A stretch of DNA of 64,000 nucleotides, from positions 124,001 through 188,000 of the forward strand of contig RFGC01000037.1 in the NCBI GenBank assembly GCA_003697135.1. The letters are read 5' to 3'. How positions within the stretch are numbered: position 1 is the stretch's first letter; each line of letters begins with the position of its first letter. Source of the DNA: Acidobacteriota bacterium. Lineage in GTDB: Bacteria; Acidobacteriota; Blastocatellia; Pyrinomonadales; Pyrinomonadaceae. This document shows, piece after piece, positions 27,985-37,415 of this stretch. The position numbers and the translations under genes were made by a program. The notes under the pieces were generated by a model that searched no databases, was not told the DNA's origin, and was given only the letters and a program-made list of their open reading frames with translations.

Positions 27985-30004
27985 GTTTCAATCCCACGTC
28001 GGTTCAATTAAAACTTGTCTGTTTTACTGCTGTTTCATTACCGAAAAACCACGTTTCAATCCCACGTCGGTTCAATTAAAACGAATCTCTTAATGGCGTC
28101 TGCACAAGTAACACTATCGTTTCAATCCCACGTCGGTTCAATTAAAACTTTCGTTCGCTTTTTGTTCACTAAAGAAAAAGCCCGCGTTTCAATCCCACGT
28201 CGGTTCAATTAAAACCCTGTGGCGGGTCGGGTTTGCTTGTTAGATCGAAGATGTTTCAATCCCACGTCGGTTCAATTAAAACAAAAACAGCTTGGGAGAA
28301 AGCTACACGCCCAGCGGCGTTTCAATCCCACGTCGGTTCAATTAAAACTTGACTTGTGACGCTCAAAAAGTTGACTTATGAGTTCGTTTCAATCCCACGT
28401 CGGTTCAATTAAAACAAGTTTTGTTAAAATCTGTTTAGAGGTAAACTACTAGTTTCAATCCCACGTCGGTTCAATTAAAACCCATGATGATCCCACCAGC
28501 TCCCATGTCCCCGCCAGGTTTCAATCCCACGTCGGTTCAATTAAAACATGAATGCGTGTATGTGTGCAGTGACGAGACGATGATAGTTTCAATCCCACGT
28601 CGGTTCAATTAAAACATATGCTCGCCTACCACTTTATCTAGCCCGATTCTGGTTTCAATCCCACGTCGGTTCAATTAAAACGCTTTCTATCGTGTCTGCT
28701 TGACACTAGTGACATAGGTTTCAATCCCACGTCGGTTCAATTAAAACCGGGTGTACCGTGATGGTAGGTGGAGCTGGCTGTGTTTCAATCCCACGTCGGT
28801 TCAATTAAAACTTTCAACTCAGCAGATCTTCTCTCACGTAAGCGTTCAGTTTCAATCCCACGTCGGTTCAATTAAAACTATTAGCTTCTCTAATTTTGTC
28901 TAACAGTGACAAGTGTTTCAATCCCACGTCGGTTCAATTAAAACTTTTCTTATCGGCTTGCTAGCTCGTGACAGTCAGAAGTTTCAATCCCACGTCGGTT
29001 CAATTAAAACCCGTTTTTCCGGCCACGACCACCCTGCTCTCTTTTTGGTTTCAATCCCACGTCGGTTCAATTAAAACAATGCTCGTAATAAGCTTCGACA
29101 TTCACCGAGTTTAGTTTCAATCCCACGTCGGTTCAATTAAAACACCACATGACGACATGATCTATTGTGCAATTGTCAAGTTTCAATCCCACGTCGGTTC
29201 AATTAAAACTGTTGCGTGTCAAGCGTATTTGAAGTAACGCGTATCGTTTCAATCCCACGTCGGTTCAATTAAAACCATACAACGTCCTCATTATCTCACT
29301 AGCCGCAACCGTGTTTCAATCCCACGTCGGTTCAATTAAAACTATGCTCGCCTACCACTTTATCTAGCCCGATTCTGGTTTCAATCCCACGTCGGTTCAA
29401 TTAAAACCAGGCGAATAGGGACTATCAGGCAGGGCGAATCAGTCGTTTCAATCCCACGTCGGTTCAATTAAAACCCAGAATGCAATAGTCGTGCTAGCGA
29501 TTTTTCTTATGTTTCAATCCCACGTCGGTTCAATTAAAACCAGGAGCAGACGCAGAAAACACCGAAGAGCATGATGGTTTCAATCCCACGTCGGTTCAAT
29601 TAAAACGGTAAACTACTATGGAAAAAACACTTCTACCCTTCAGTTTCAATCCCACGTCGGTTCAATTAAAACGAGGGCGCACAAGTGACGATGAGATTGC
29701 CCAAAGTGTTTCAATCCCACGTCGGTTCAATTAAAACCTATCTGGTACGATTTCATCGACTCTTACGGCTACGTGTTTCAATCCCACGTCGGTTCAATTA
29801 AAACGCGACCCCATCGACGAATCCCAAATCGTCGACCCACGGTTTCAATCCCACGTCGGTTCAATTAAAACCTGAGAATTTTGACAGCATCGATTCAATA
29901 AATACTGAGTTTCAATCCCACGTCGGTTCAATTAAAACGCCGTATGATCGAACGAGATCATACCAGATCACTGAGTTTCAATCCCACGTCGGTTCAATTA
30001 AAAC
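27985..30004 (-). CRISPR. CRISPR array, 31 repeats of 30 bp and 30 spacers, transcribed leftward
   Basis: On the plus strand each repeat runs from GTTTCAATCC to TTCAATTAAAAC. Every copy I compared from first (27985) to last (29975) is identical, with no degenerate terminal repeat. Spacers are 34-38 bp. On the minus strand the repeat ends ATTGAAAC, the usual 8-nt 5' crRNA handle of type I-B systems, and a TTGACA-18-CATAAT promoter lies at the right end. Transcription is therefore leftward, and the newest spacers are near 30000. Spacers 10 (28616-28651) and 21 (29343-29377) are the same sequence apart from one base of length. Spacers 7 (28416-28451) and 25 (29607-29642) overlap by 12 nt. Confidence 0.98.
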
Positions 30005-30046
30005 CCCCCCTTGTTTTGGTAGTAAACATAGGGAACTTTGAGATAT

Positions 30047-30076
30047 ATTATGCAGTCGAACGTCGGTAATTGTCAA
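30047..30076 (-). promoter_or_regulatory. CRISPR leader promoter
   Basis: On the minus strand TTGACA (30076-30071), 18 bases, CATAAT (30052-30047). Transcription would begin near 30040 and enter the first repeat at 30004. The leader spans about 30005-30130. It also contains repeat-like blocks AATTGA and ACCGACGT (minus strand, 30078-30060). Confidence 0.65.
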
Positions 30077-30131
30077 TTCTTAGGGGATCGACGGCAGAAA
30101 AACAAATTCTGACTTGAGGAGCAAAAATTAC

Positions 30132-30160
30132 TTGACAGAATTTTGTCATTTTGTTACTTT
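30132..30160 (+). promoter_or_regulatory. Putative promoter of the cas operon
   Basis: TTGACA (30132-30137), 17 bases, TACTTT (30155-30160). A near-palindrome, GACAGAATTTTGTC, overlaps the -35. It diverges from the array promoter within about 60 bases. Confidence 0.45.
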
Positions 30161-30181: not shown

Positions 30182-30940
30182 ATGCGTTTGGTTACTGATT
30201 ACAGGTTAAAAAGTAATACCTTGCCGATTGACTACCGTAGAGGTTTTGCTTCTTTGATTAAGGAAGCGCTTAGGAGAGAGAATAAGCCACTTTACGAGCT
30301 TTACTATTCACGTCCTACACCGAAGCCCTTTACCTTTTCGGTATTCTTTCCTGAACTAAGCGGTTTGATAGAGATAAACGGGAGAAGATATTTCAATGTA
30401 GGCTCGAAAGCAAGGTTAAATTTCTCGACCTGCTCAAAAGACTTTTATGTAAGTGTTTACAATGGGTTTTTGAATATTGAAAAGTATCAACTTTTTGAAA
30501 ACGAATTGGCTTTTGAAAATCTTTTCATAGGTTTTGAAGCTAGAATTGCTGAAGAAAAAGCTGTTTTTAAGACGATGTCGCCAGTTGTTATCAATAAAAA
30601 AGGAGAATCTCATCGTTATCTTTTACCTGAAGATTCAGAATTTGCAGAAAATTTAGGTTTTCATATCAAGGAGATTAGCTCGGCTTTTGGCGGTATCGAG
30701 AATCCCTGTGTTGAGTTCAAAGCAATAGAATGGCGTCGTAGGGCGGTTAAGCATTATGACAGTGATATTTACGGTTTCACAGGCATTTTTGAGCTATATG
30801 GCCAACCGAAAGTTTTGAATTTAATTTACCAAGTTGGCCTTGGAGTGCGCCGTAGCCAAGGATTTGGCATGTTGGAGCTTGCGCACACGAGCGGCCAACA
30901 GAGCCAATCATCATCTCAAGAGGAGACCGCCCATGGGTAG
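30182..30940 (+). CDS. cas6: CRISPR-associated endoribonuclease Cas6
   Basis: The endonuclease that cuts pre-crRNA within each repeat and leaves the AUUGAAAC handle. The protein has about 252 residues in two ferredoxin-like folds, with the C-terminal glycine-rich loop GLGVRRSQGFGMLEL typical of Cas6. The frame is open from a TTG at 30143, but MRLVTDYRLKSNTLPIDYRRGF at 30182 matches the usual Cas6 N-terminus. It is the first gene of the operon, and its stop overlaps the cas8 start by 8 bases. Confidence 0.9.
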   Translation: MRLVTDYRLKSNTLPIDYRRGFASLIKEALRRENKPLYELYYSRPTPKPFTFSVFFPELSGLIEINGRRYFNVGSKARLNFSTCSKDFYVSVYNGFLNIEKYQLFENELAFENLFIGFEARIAEEKAVFKTMSPVVINKKGESHRYLLPEDSEFAENLGFHIKEISSAFGGIENPCVEFKAIEWRRRAVKHYDSDIYGFTGIFELYGQPKVLNLIYQVGLGVRRSQGFGMLELAHTSGQQSQSSSQEETAHG

Positions 30941-32133
30941 CATTACGCTCTATCCATCGAACTGGTTGTATAATGCTGGGGTGATTGGACTCCTCTTAGT
31001 TCAAGATCATGTTGGCGAGCATGCTGAAGAAAACTTAAAAGACGATGGTTCGTATTCGCTTTCTGATAGCTACTTTGCTCCCATAGGAGTAGAATCAAAG
31101 CAAATTCCCAAAGCTATCGTCAACCTCGTAAATGCTGTAGTAGCAGATAACGAACTACGAGAATGGCTCACAGAGCAAAATCGGAAGAAATACGAACAAT
31201 TTGAAAAAGATTTGGGAGAGTTTGGATTTAGGTTTGTTCGAGCCGGCAATAAGCTTTTTGCTTCAAAGACGCCTTATCAAAATCTCGTGCAACTTTCGGA
31301 ATGGCAATCTTACGAATACCCTGATTTGGTTAGGAGGATTCCTGAGCTTTTTAAGCAAAATGAGCAAAGAGACAGTAATCTGTGTCAGCTATGTGGCTAT
31401 AATTCTGTTCTGCTTTTTAATCCAAACAGCAAGTTGCAACAAAGACTGACGAAGCTTCAGGCTACTCACTTGAAGAACCTTGGTCCTTCCCTCGGAGAAT
31501 TTCCTAACGGATTCTGGTGTCTGAATCAAAGCATGGGGATATGTTTCTTATGCTCTTTTCTCATCATCCACCATCACCTTGCTTTCATCCGGCTCTCCGA
31601 TGGCTCTGAAATCTTCATCAATGCGCCTTCATTCAAGGTGATGTATTACCTGAATAGGTTTGCCAGAGAGGTGTTTGGTGCGTCTTCACGGGAAGAAGCG
31701 CTTGAGAAAAGAGAGATTCTGGCGATGTCGGTGATCGAATATGCCACGAAAATCAAAACGACTCTCGGAATATGGACGGGAATGAACATTGAGGTTGTCA
31801 GCCGCTATGGAAGTCAAATCGAATACTTTAGCTTGCCCTACGAGGTCACTGAGCTTATCTCAGATCGGCGGATTGCCGCTCTTTTGAGCCAGATCGGCGA
31901 GTTTGCCATCCTGAATCTTGTGCTCGCTCAGGATTTCTCCCGTCTGATGGAATTGGGCTATCGCCTTCTGCGGGTCGGACTGAAGTCCTATGGCGAGCGT
32001 GGTAAGTCTGAAAAAGATTTCATCAGACAAACTCTTCGGTCAGATAAAAACCGACAGAATCCTACTCGTGTGGCTGAGCGGATTTTTCAGCTTTGTGCTT
32101 TTGTTGAAGAAAAACGTAAAAGGAGGTTGTATT

Positions 32134-32156
<23 letters not shown>
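30933..32156 (+). CDS. cas8b1: Type I-B Cascade large subunit Cas8b1/Cst1 (CXXC-CXXC family)
   Basis: The large subunit of the crRNA-guided Cascade complex, responsible for PAM recognition. It opens MGSITLYPSNWLYNAGVIGLLLV, the Cst1 N-terminal signature, and has paired zinc-type motifs CQLC (151-154) and CFLC (204-207), which define the CXXC-CXXC family. The ATG at 30933 has AGGAGA six bases upstream. The frame extends further back to 30834 but within cas6. It has 407 residues and ends just after the start of a separate helical gene, which seems to provide the C-terminal small-subunit part. Confidence 0.88.
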
Positions 32157-33689
<1,533 letters not shown>

Positions 33690-33890
33690 CAATGAAGGAG
33701 GGCGGCAGACTGACATAGACCGACAGCAGGAGCAGGTAGAAGAAAGTGCCAGTGAGCAAGTTGATGATGGCGAAAAGTCTTAGTATCGACAGTAAGCCTG
33801 TGCTTCCTGGCGCAGAAGCCGTGTGTGAGAATCTCAAGAGCGAGGATATAAAGCTTCGCAATGAGTGAACTGACTGCTATGAGGAGTGCA

Positions 33891-34712
33891 ATGCACATCT
33901 TGCGAATCCGAATCTACCAACCACAGGCGCACTACCGTGTCCCGTTTACTTACCGGAGACGCCACACTTACCCGATTTCTCCGTATTCGACCGTGATCGG
34001 TTTTTTGTGCAATGTCTTGGGCATTGATGACCAGTCGAAGCCTGAGTATCAGCAGCTCAAAAAAATCAAAATCTCGATCGCCGGGCGATTCGGAAGCAAA
34101 ACAACAGAATACATTTGGTTTCGCAATCTATCGGAATCCGCGCATGTCGGGCGTTTCGGTTCTGTGGAGAATCGTAGCGTGGGTGGGCACATCGAGCACA
34201 TTGGAGGACAATCACCGACTCGAATTGATATTCTTGATGATGTTCATCTGGTGATTCATTTAGCTCACGAGTCGGAAGATTTTTTAGGGTTGATAAAAAA
34301 TTCCCTTGAAAATCCCGATAAGCGGCTGGAAATCTTGCATCTGGGGCGTGCCGAAGATTGGATCGTGCTTGAAGAAGTGTCTGAGGTGATGAAGGTCTCG
34401 AAGTTTTGCGTGAAAATAATGGATAAAAACTTTAGGTACTTTTTCTGGATTCCTGAAAAAATCTGGGTGCCCGATGGTGCAAGCGATAATTACGGCGCGT
34501 TTGAGGGGCTTCTCTATCGTTTGCCTTCCTTTTGGACGGTCGCTGACTACGAGCAGACCCGCAACCGTCATGGACAAAGGATTTTCGAGTATGTGTCGGC
34601 AAAACTCAATGATGGCCTCTTTGGTGGGATGCTTTTTCTTTGCGACGAGGTCAAACGATCTTTTCTTTACGACGAGGATGTAAAACTCCCTGTCTTCTTG
34701 GCTAATTTTTGA
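33891..34712 (+). CDS. cas5: Type I-B Cascade protein Cas5b
   Basis: It binds the 5' handle of the crRNA and caps the Cas7 filament. The chosen start at 33891 (MHILRIRIYQPQAHYRVPFTY) gives the normal Cas5 N-terminal beta strand and has GAGGAG upstream at short spacing. An ATG at 33861 would add ten residues. YPISPYSTVIGFLCNVLGI is the typical Cas5 second segment. It has about 273 residues. cas3 starts nine bases after its stop. Confidence 0.87.
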   Translation: MHILRIRIYQPQAHYRVPFTYRRRHTYPISPYSTVIGFLCNVLGIDDQSKPEYQQLKKIKISIAGRFGSKTTEYIWFRNLSESAHVGRFGSVENRSVGGHIEHIGGQSPTRIDILDDVHLVIHLAHESEDFLGLIKNSLENPDKRLEILHLGRAEDWIVLEEVSEVMKVSKFCVKIMDKNFRYFFWIPEKIWVPDGASDNYGAFEGLLYRLPSFWTVADYEQTRNRHGQRIFEYVSAKLNDGLFGGMLFLCDEVKRSFLYDEDVKLPVFLANF

Positions 34713-34721
34713 GGTGAGTCT

Positions 34722-37415
34722 ATGAGCGAGAATAGCCACATTTGGGCGAAGAGCAGCGAGAAAGGAGGAGGTGAATCCGTTCGCCTTTCCAAGCACATAA
34801 AGGATGTGCTCGAAGCGTTTCAAAGATTGATCGAAGCGTCTCAAAGATTGAAGGATAAAGTCAGCGACGAACTTCATGAAGCAATCAAGCTTGCTATCAT
34901 TTGCCACGACTGGGGCAAAGTCCTACCAGCGTTTCAGATACGGACGTTGAAGAATACCAGCTATTCTCCACCTTATGCTCTCTACAACGTTCCTCACTCG
35001 CTTTTTTCAGTTCTCTGGATTGACCGACAGAAGCTTTGTGAGAAAGTAGGTGATAAAACGCTTGTTCCTTTCGTTGTTTCTGCTGTAGCCTATCACCACT
35101 GGAGAGAAAGTTTCTTTGATCTGATCAGCTCCAGAAGCAGTGAGTTAGGCGCTCTCTGTGATGAACTGGAACGCAAAGGTTACATCGAACAACTCAAGAA
35201 GAACCTGGAAGAAGAGATCAAAGAATTAGGCGATGATTGGTGTAATCTTATCAACTTCAATTCCAGGATGGCTCAGGGCTTACGAAATGGCGTCCCCTTC
35301 ACCGAGTACGCTCTTCCGCCTTATCAACTCTACTGGTTGCCGAAGCGAGCTGGAATGGATGAGCAAACCCTAAAGAAATGGATTCTCATTGCCGGTTTTC
35401 TCCAGCGTGCAGATCACTTTGCTTCATATTGTGAGTCAGAAGGTGAGACTTTGGTCGAGTTGCCGGCCCCGAGCTTCGATGAGGCTAAAGAAAAAGTTAA
35501 GAATAAAATTCAGAATAAAATTCAGGGAAAGGTCCCTTCTTCAGAGGAAGAATCTATCTGGCAGTTTCAGAAAATCGAAGAACTGAAGGACAAAAACGTC
35601 ATTCTCATTGCGCCGACAGGCTACGGGAAGACGGAGTTTGCTTTCCTCTGGTCGGGTGGGGAGAAATTCTTCTACACGTTGCCGCTGCGGGCAGCGGTAA
35701 ACCAGATATACGAGCGAGCAAAAAGCATCTTCGGCGATGATAAGACGGGCTTGCTTCATTCGGATGCTGATGTGTTTCTCTTGGGAGATGGAGGCGAAGA
35801 ACAAACAAGCATGAAAGCCTACGATCTTGCCCGCCAATTGAGCTTTCCGACGATCATATCCACAGGCGATCAGTTCTTCCCGTATGCTCTGCGACCGCCC
35901 GGATACGAAAAAATCTACGCCACGTTCTCGTATTCTCGCCTTGTCATTGATGAAGTGCAGGCTTACGACCCCCGAGCTGCCGCCATCGTTGTGAAATTCA
36001 TCGAAGACGTCGTGCGAATGGGCGGAAAGTTCTTGCTCATGACAGCTACGCTTCCTCGGTTTGTGAAGGAAGAGATCGATGCTTCTGTCGGCTGTTCACA
36101 AAAGATAGAAGTTAAAACACCAGCCGCGTTCGTGAAGGACGAGATCAATGCTTCTGTCGGGGCTTACTGTATTCTGAACCTTTACGAGGAAGAAAAGTCA
36201 TGTTTTGAGCAGATCAAAAAAGAGGAAGAAAAGTCACGTTTTGAGCAGATCAAAAAACATAAGGTAAAAGTCGAGCTTATCGAAAACAACGCAAGCGACA
36301 ACAAGATCGATTTCTCTGTTCCTGACGGGAAGCTCCAGGAAGTTCTAGACACTGCAAATAGCGGAAAGCGTGTTCTCGTCATCGCCAATACGGTCAAGCA
36401 GGCGCAGGATATATTTTCACGGCTAGAAAGCAAGATTGATAACCAAAGCAACCAATACTCTGCCCTTAAAGACAAACTGTGGCTTTTGCACTCGCGATTT
36501 ACTTTAGCAGACCGCAAGCAGAAAGAGGAAAAACTCCAGCAAGAGTTTAGCAATCCCAAACCAGATAACGAATCAATTGGCAAAATTCTCGTGGCAACGC
36601 AAGTTGTTGAAGCCTCGCTCGATATTGATGCGGATGTTCTGTTCACCGAGGTTGCTCCTCTGGACGCACTGGTTCAAAGGATGGGAAGAGTGCTTAGAAG
36701 ATACGGTCCGACAAGCCAGAGTGTTCCGAAACCGAAAAAGCCGAATGTTACAATTTGGGTTTTCCAGCAAGAGCTTCAGTCAGGACAGCACCACGTGTAC
36801 GACACGGACGTTGTCCTTCTGACACTCAAGCTGTTGAAAGATAAAAGCGACAATCAACTTGCAAACAACTACAAGGACTGGCTGGCAACTAAAAGACGCG
36901 AAAAAGCCAAGAACACAGATCGAATTGCGGCAGTCCTTGAAGAGATATTCGCTACCGGATCGCTTGAGTTTGAATGCACTCTTTCCGAATATGACAAGTT
37001 TGGCTTGGTCGAAAAACTTTATGATCTGCCAGATGACCACGACTACATGGTGAAGTTTCGCCGAACGAAGGATATTCTTGATGCAGGGTATATCTCCGAT
37101 AAGAAAAGCGAGGCTCAAGAGATGTTTCGCGATATTCATGACCTGAGCGTTATTCCATCAAATTGCATTGATAATTTTTTGAACGAGGCGAAGACTAAGG
37201 CAAACTACGTTGGCTTCAAAAAAATACTATCCGAATATGTTGTATCAGTTAGTGAAGGAGCACTGAAAGGTGAGAAGTATGACAGGGTAGAATCTTACAT
37301 TGAAAGCTCAACGGCTCTCACAGACGAACAAAAAAAGAAGTTAAGGCGTTGGTGCAAGGATATTTATTCGGCGAAAATAGAATACGATAAAAAAATTGGC
37401 ATAAAAAATCTTTGA
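34722..37415 (+). CDS. cas3: CRISPR-associated helicase-nuclease Cas3 (HD domain fused)
   Basis: The effector that degrades target DNA after Cascade binding, 897 residues. The N-terminal HD nuclease domain shows His25 (LSKHIKDV), His62-Asp63 (CHDWGK) and VAYHHW. The superfamily 2 helicase follows with Walker A APTGYGKTEF (about 298-305), Walker B VIDEVQAYDP (about 410) and MTATLP (about 440), plus QVVEASLDIDADVLFTE and QRMGRVLRR. Several short in-frame tandem duplications are seen: NKIQNKIQ, FVKEEIDASVG/FVKDEINASVG and a 36-bp pair at 36186-36257. The 36-bp pair lies in the inter-RecA region. AGGTGA precedes the ATG. Confidence 0.93.
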   Translation: MSENSHIWAKSSEKGGGESVRLSKHIKDVLEAFQRLIEASQRLKDKVSDELHEAIKLAIICHDWGKVLPAFQIRTLKNTSYSPPYALYNVPHSLFSVLWIDRQKLCEKVGDKTLVPFVVSAVAYHHWRESFFDLISSRSSELGALCDELERKGYIEQLKKNLEEEIKELGDDWCNLINFNSRMAQGLRNGVPFTEYALPPYQLYWLPKRAGMDEQTLKKWILIAGFLQRADHFASYCESEGETLVELPAPSFDEAKEKVKNKIQNKIQGKVPSSEEESIWQFQKIEELKDKNVILIAPTGYGKTEFAFLWSGGEKFFYTLPLRAAVNQIYERAKSIFGDDKTGLLHSDADVFLLGDGGEEQTSMKAYDLARQLSFPTIISTGDQFFPYALRPPGYEKIYATFSYSRLVIDEVQAYDPRAAAIVVKFIEDVVRMGGKFLLMTATLPRFVKEEIDASVGCSQKIEVKTPAAFVKDEINASVGAYCILNLYEEEKSCFEQIKKEEEKSRFEQIKKHKVKVELIENNASDNKIDFSVPDGKLQEVLDTANSGKRVLVIANTVKQAQDIFSRLESKIDNQSNQYSALKDKLWLLHSRFTLADRKQKEEKLQQEFSNPKPDNESIGKILVATQVVEASLDIDADVLFTEVAPLDALVQRMGRVLRRYGPTSQSVPKPKKPNVTIWVFQQELQSGQHHVYDTDVVLLTLKLLKDKSDNQLANNYKDWLATKRREKAKNTDRIAAVLEEIFATGSLEFECTLSEYDKFGLVEKLYDLPDDHDYMVKFRRTKDILDAGYISDKKSEAQEMFRDIHDLSVIPSNCIDNFLNEAKTKANYVGFKKILSEYVVSVSEGALKGEKYDRVESYIESSTALTDEQKKKLRRWCKDIYSAKIEYDKKIGIKNL

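What the first reader, a model, noticed from the sequence alone, without database searches (positions are those of the whole stretch)
28416..29642. Two spacers overlap end to end, rebuild 60 nt of one target and reveal a CCA PAM
Spacer 7 (28416-28451) ends in GGTAAACTACTA and spacer 25 (29607-29642) begins with the same 12 bases. Such an end-to-end match between any two of 30 spacers is very unlikely by chance (870 ordered pairs against 4^12). Joined, they give 60 nt containing AGAGGT, a short gap and ATGGAA..., which looks like a ribosome-binding site and start codon of a phage or plasmid gene. In crRNA orientation (minus strand) the bases just 5' of the spacer 7 protospacer, read from spacer 25, are CCA. 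This matches PAMs known for type I-B systems (CCN/CCW).
Basis: partly seen in the sequence, partly recalled or inferred. Interest (0 to 1): 0.75.

Follow-up and report, generated by a model that had tools for sequence, protein, structure and literature searches.

The report
Overlapping CRISPR spacers reveal CCN PAM
Several stored fragments in this bacterium's CRISPR arrays overlap one another, so they rebuild short stretches of unseen invaders and show that the immune system picks fragments right after the letters CC; this is a neat but otherwise ordinary feature of a type I-B CRISPR system.

Summary
Spacer 7 (28416-28451) ends, and spacer 25 (29607-29642) begins, with GGTAAACTACTA; simulated sets of 30 spacers give about 0.0003 end-to-end overlaps of 12 nt or more. 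The crRNA strand is minus: the leader lies to the right, the repeat ends in ATTGAAAC, and a type I-B effector operon (cas6-8b-11b-7-5-3) follows. The triplet 5' of the spacer 7 protospacer is therefore CCA. The genome holds two more arrays with near-identical repeats (105 spacers in all) and one I-B-type cas4-cas1-cas2 set on another contig. Exact overlaps among these spacers give four readable 5' flanks: CCA, CCA, CCA, CCG. All carry CC (p about 3e-6); six 3' flanks carry none. Two diverged overlaps add CCG and CCT. Four protospacers were stored twice, with identical PAM-side ends and a one-base difference at the other end. So the PAM is CCN, as known for I-B2 systems (Pyrococcus furiosus, Clostridioides difficile). 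No protospacer was found outside the arrays (phages, plasmids, IMG/VR patterns, related genomes), so the target is unidentified and the gene-start reading is only plausible. Reading CCN from overlapping spacers has a direct precedent in Sulfolobus (PMC3468723).

The parts
27985..30004 (-). CRISPR array, 31 identical repeats, 30 spacers; crRNA strand is minus
28416..28451 (-). spacer 7 (24th from the leader); inferred PAM CCA, read from spacer 25
29607..29642 (-). spacer 25 (6th from the leader); shares 12 nt end to end with spacer 7
28437..28442 (+). AGAGGT in spacer 7, possible ribosome-binding site of the target gene
   Evidence: sequence; interpretation is inference
29618..29620 (+). ATG in spacer 25, 8 nt after GAGGT in the joined sequence; possible start codon of the target gene
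   Evidence: sequence; interpretation is inference
29475..29510 (-). spacer 23; inferred PAM CCG, read from spacer 15; also overlapped by 28 nt on the opposite strand by a C12 spacer
28945..28980 (-). spacer 15; 9-nt end-to-end overlap with spacer 23; diverged same-register copy in the C12 array (32 of 36 identical)
28616..28651 (-). spacer 10; same protospacer as spacer 21, one base longer at the crRNA 3' end
29343..29377 (-). spacer 21; same protospacer as spacer 10
29210..29245 (-). spacer 19; same protospacer as a spacer of the C42/C12 array, which is one base longer at the crRNA 3' end
28748..28781 (-). spacer 12; same protospacer as a spacer of the C12 array, which is one base longer at the crRNA 3' end
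30005..30142 (-). leader region; shares blocks and a terminal G-run with the leaders of the other arrays of this genome
30143..30940 (+). cas6
30897..32156 (+). cas8b (Cst1-like large subunit)
32122..32643 (+). cas11b (small subunit)
32661..33689 (+). cas7 (Cst2/DevR)
33861..34712 (+). cas5 (Cas5t)
34722..37415 (+). cas3 (helicase with HD nuclease)

Best explanation
Spacers 7 and 25 are two protospacers from the same strand of one mobile element, starting 24 nt apart and overlapping by 12 nt. They were stored by a type I-B adaptation machine that cuts just 3' of a CCN motif on the crRNA-sense strand and measures about 36 nt with a loose far end. The machine is most likely the I-B-type Cas4-Cas1-Cas2 set on contig C12 acting in trans, because the window operon has none. 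The genome's three arrays with this repeat sample the same small group of related elements, so spacers overlap, repeat or form diverged pairs across arrays. Shown: the overlaps, CC at -3/-2 in every exact overlap that can be read, fixed 5' and loose 3' ends of repeated protospacers, the I-B effectors, and where cas1/2/4 lie. Inferred: that Cas4-Cas1-Cas2 works in trans, that CCN is also the interference PAM, and that the elements are phages.
For: Overlap beyond chance. Four of four 5' flanks from exact overlaps carry CC (CCA, CCA, CCA, CCG) and none of six 3' flanks do; background CC 0.040, p = 2.6e-6. Diverged overlaps add CCG and CCT. Four protospacers stored twice share the crRNA 5' end and differ by one base at the 3' end. 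Type I-B operon; cas4-cas1-cas2 on C12 beside an array with the same repeat bar one base. Known CCN in I-B2 and the same end behaviour in Sulfolobus.
Against: No protospacer was seen in any real target. Only four exact flanks are readable. Two weak, chance-level alignments would give non-CCN flanks (TCC for spacer 12 from a glycine-rich repeat; AAT for spacer 30) and were not counted. That the contigs belong to one cell rests on binning.
Confidence: 0.9

Rival explanations
1. The 12-nt identity is a chance match between spacers from unrelated elements, and the CCA is accidental.
For: Among all 105 spacers about 0.75 ungapped local matches scoring 12 (+1/-2, anywhere in the spacers) are expected, and no target was found to prove contiguity.
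Against: The match is exactly end to end, which is expected only about 3e-4 times in this array, and the same CC flank recurs in independent overlaps.
Confidence: 0.03
2. The overlaps and repeats reflect primed adaptation: an older, partly matching spacer directs new acquisition from nearby sites, so spacer 25 was acquired because spacer 7 was already there.
For: Spacer 25 is closer to the leader (newer) than spacer 7 and lies on the same strand. Repeated protospacers are somewhat more frequent than uniform sampling predicts (four seen, about 1.1 expected for a 60-kb pool).
Against: If the pool is only about 60 kb (25-183 kb), unprimed sampling gives this many overlaps by itself. Overlaps occur on both strands and between arrays, with no clear polarity.
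Confidence: 0.25
3. The repeated protospacers arose by copying within or between arrays and later one-base changes, not by separate acquisition.
For: Four pairs are identical over 34-36 nt, and array rearrangement is known in general.
Against: All four differ only in length, by one base, and always at the crRNA 3' end; neighbouring spacers are not shared. Copying does not explain the partial and opposite-strand overlaps.
Confidence: 0.1

Closest known systems
Overlapping new spacers with CCN PAM in Sulfolobus solfataricus (Erdmann and Garrett 2012, PMC3468723)
   Same: Overlapping spacers on both strands assembled into contigs; invariant CCN; homogeneous PAM-side ends and heterogeneous far ends
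   Different: There the spacers were newly acquired in culture from a known element; here they are standing spacers of a binned genome with no known target
Type I-B2 systems of Pyrococcus furiosus (CCN) and Clostridioides difficile (YCN interference, CCN adaptation)
   Same: I-B effectors with the same PAM (PMC13199841; PMC8406132); Cst-type cas7/cas5 in the window
   Different: Host lineage, repeat, and a window operon that lacks its own cas1, cas2 and cas4
Multi-effector compatible arrays (PMC8482600)
   Same: Spacers stored with one PAM and a shared or near-identical repeat can serve more than one effector
   Different: Here both effectors are I-B variants (Cst-type and Csh-type) that would share one Cas4-Cas1-Cas2 set; that survey's shared-repeat, shared-acquisition class pairs a DNA-targeting with an RNA-targeting system

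Membership tests
Type I-B CRISPR-Cas (Cst / I-B2 variant), window locus | Cas8b, Cas7 (Cst2), Cas5t, Cas6 and Cas3 in one operon | tested here: met
Type I-B CRISPR-Cas (Cst / I-B2 variant), window locus | Own cas4-cas1-cas2 beside the effector genes | tested here: not met
   none among the window ORFs around the operon; cas1 found on C12 and C40 only. Not essential for subtype assignment
Type I-B CRISPR-Cas (Cst / I-B2 variant), window locus | Repeat ending in ATTGAAAC on the crRNA strand | tested here: met
CCN-selecting adaptation (5' PAM, fixed PAM-side end) | CC at -3/-2 of protospacers | tested here: met
   4 of 4 exact internal overlaps, p = 2.6e-6
CCN-selecting adaptation (5' PAM, fixed PAM-side end) | PAM-side end constant and far end variable in repeated acquisitions | tested here: met
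   4 of 4 repeated protospacers
CCN-selecting adaptation (5' PAM, fixed PAM-side end) | Protospacers mapped in a real target with CCN | tested here: inconclusive
   no target found
CCN-selecting adaptation (5' PAM, fixed PAM-side end) | CCN licenses interference by the window effector | not testable with these tools
   needs a plasmid-interference assay

The most novel reading that the evidence does not exclude
Two different I-B effector complexes (Cst-type in the window, Csh-type on C12) share one Cas4-Cas1-Cas2 set and one CCN rule, and store the same, overlapping or homologous protospacers in separate arrays. The same few viruses (a pool of roughly 25-180 kb) are then covered by two distinct machines, with repeat acquisition at preferred sites even in diverged viruses.
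Probability: 0.35. Interest if true: 0.45.

Novelty: new member of a known kind. Interest (0 to 1): 0.33.

Why it matters
It gives the PAM and crRNA strand of an apparently uncultured bacterium's CRISPR system without any known target, from the arrays alone. Target searches become stricter, and overlaps inside standing natural arrays prove usable for this. The recurrence of the same protospacers across arrays suggests a small, recurring set of viruses and preferred acquisition sites, which can be tested in the source metagenome.

Tried and rejected
Searches for the targets: the joined 60 nt against phage records and the own genome; whole arrays against phages and the window array against plasmids; eight IMG/VR pattern scans, mostly codon-degenerate; a joined peptide against phages; joined DNA and peptides in 145 relatives and the joined 60 nt in 396 genomes of the phylum. 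None matched outside the arrays. The repeat was not found in the GTDB contig collection; the one same-genus genome has a short array with a one-base-different repeat and no shared spacers. An array on C40 with a different repeat has three spacers without convincing overlap. Open frames across the joined sequences were considered but not used as evidence, because most random stretches of that length are open in at least one of six frames (own estimate). From protein sizes I briefly suspected a Craspase-like locus on C40; family searches showed a DruE-like helicase, a purL-like gene and a HemN-like gene instead. Weak overlaps at chance level (TCC and AAT readings) were not counted.

Full report
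Observation. The array at 27985-30004 has 31 identical 30-nt repeats and 30 spacers. Spacer 7 (28416-28451) and spacer 25 (29607-29642) are as described and share GGTAAACTACTA end to end. In simulated sets of 30 spacers with the same dinucleotide make-up, both orientations counted, overlaps of 12 nt or more occur about 0.0003 times and of 9 nt or more about 0.011 times; two are observed. The second is spacer 23 / spacer 15 (TTTTCTTAT). Spacers 10 and 21 are one protospacer stored twice.

Orientation. The repeat reads GTTTTAATTGAACCGACGTGGGATTGAAAC on the minus strand and ends in the ATTGAAAC handle common in type I and III repeats (PMC8482600). The sequence to the right of the array shares blocks and a terminal G-run with the sequence before the first repeat of the other arrays of this genome. 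So the leader is on the right and the crRNA strand is minus. The cas operon runs to the right on the plus strand: cas6, cas8b, cas11b, cas7 (Cst2/DevR), cas5 (Cas5t), cas3. No cas1, cas2 or cas4 is beside it.

Wider genome. The window is part of a 2.79-Mb genome in 47 contigs. The same repeat occurs in two further arrays, with one base different in one of them. The first lies across the end of C42 and the start of C12, which share a spacer. The second is C12:66166-69783, beside a complete Csh-type I-B locus with cas6, cas8b, cas7, cas5, cas3, cas4, cas1 and cas2. In all, 105 spacers were compared.

PAM from the arrays themselves. Exact end-to-end overlaps of 9 nt or more give four 5' flanks: CCA for spacer 7 (from spacer 25), CCG for spacer 23 (from spacer 15), and CCA and CCA for the two partners of a 20-nt opposite-strand overlap between the C42/C12 array and the C12 array. 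Six 3' flanks read TTT, TGT, ATA, ATC, TCT and ACT. CC makes up 4.0% of dinucleotides in the spacers, so four of four has p = 2.6e-6. Two diverged overlaps give CCG (C12 spacer 36) and CCT (C12 spacer 30). Four protospacers stored twice keep the crRNA 5' end and differ by one base at the 3' end. This is the pattern expected when the PAM fixes one cut and a ruler sets the other. In Sulfolobus, overlapping new spacers were assembled and CCN was read off in the same manner, with homogeneous PAM-side ends (PMC3468723).

Target. The joined plus strand has GAGGT, 8 nt, then ATG GAA AAA ACA. This fits a gene start, but it is post hoc, with odds of roughly 1% by my own estimate. Other joined stretches translate to plausible peptides. 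Diverged same-register spacers (spacer 15 against C12 spacer 33) differ at two synonymous and two conservative codons in one frame, which suggests related viruses. No target was found outside the arrays. From five overlapping pairs, a uniform-sampling estimate gives a pool of about 60 kb (25-183 kb). The four repeated protospacers are then somewhat more than the 1.1 expected, which hints at preferred sites or priming without proving either.

Mechanism. Most likely the I-B-type Cas4-Cas1-Cas2 set on C12 feeds all three arrays, because their repeats and leaders are nearly the same and all show CC flanks. A second cas4-cas1 fusion with cas2 exists on C40 beside an array with a different repeat, so it is the less likely source. 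The two I-B effector complexes would then guard against the same elements. The flanks are shown; adaptation in trans and sharing of targets are inferred.

Known or new. CCN is listed for the I-B2 system of P. furiosus and YCN for C. difficile (PMC13199841); CCN is reported for adaptation in C. difficile (PMC8406132) and for several I-B repeat clusters (PMC8482600). The system is a new example of a known kind. What is mildly unusual is the density of overlaps and repeated protospacers in standing arrays; the Sulfolobus authors call overlapping spacers rare in natural strains. Two I-B variants that appear to share one adaptation set are also noteworthy.

Noticed in passing
L016:33-69 and L017:12914-12950; L017:11660-11695 and L017:12451-12485: Diverged spacer pairs in exactly the same register: QDRRKIAEITGL against QDRKRIYEITGL, and two glycine-rich-coding spacers, suggesting the same site was sampled from related viruses. 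Each pair alone is near chance level.
   Followed up: partly
29939-29974 and 29738-29774: Spacers 30 and 27 (opposite strands) may encode the homologous peptides IWYDLVRSYG and IWYDFIDSYGY, hinting at another diverged pair; the match is near chance level for the number of comparisons.
   Followed up: partly
L017:9342-10673 (contig C12): The I-B Cas1 carries an insert of roughly 100 residues rich in Ser, Glu and Asp before the Cas1 core, not matched by the Cas1 models.
   Followed up: no
L019:2474-10148 (contig C40): A Cas4-Cas1 fusion and Cas2 of I-G kind with a 4-repeat array of a different repeat lie next to a DruE-like helicase and housekeeping genes, with no I-G effector genes seen in 16 kb.
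   Followed up: partly
L024:386-1476 (same-genus genome): The only same-genus genome searched has a short array with a one-base-different repeat and decayed repeats about 500 bases downstream; it shares no spacer with this genome.
   Followed up: partly
L017:14447-14485 and L017:14516-14554: Two neighbouring spacers of the C12 array overlap by 16 nt on opposite strands at their 3' ends, as if both were taken from one short fragment.
   Followed up: no
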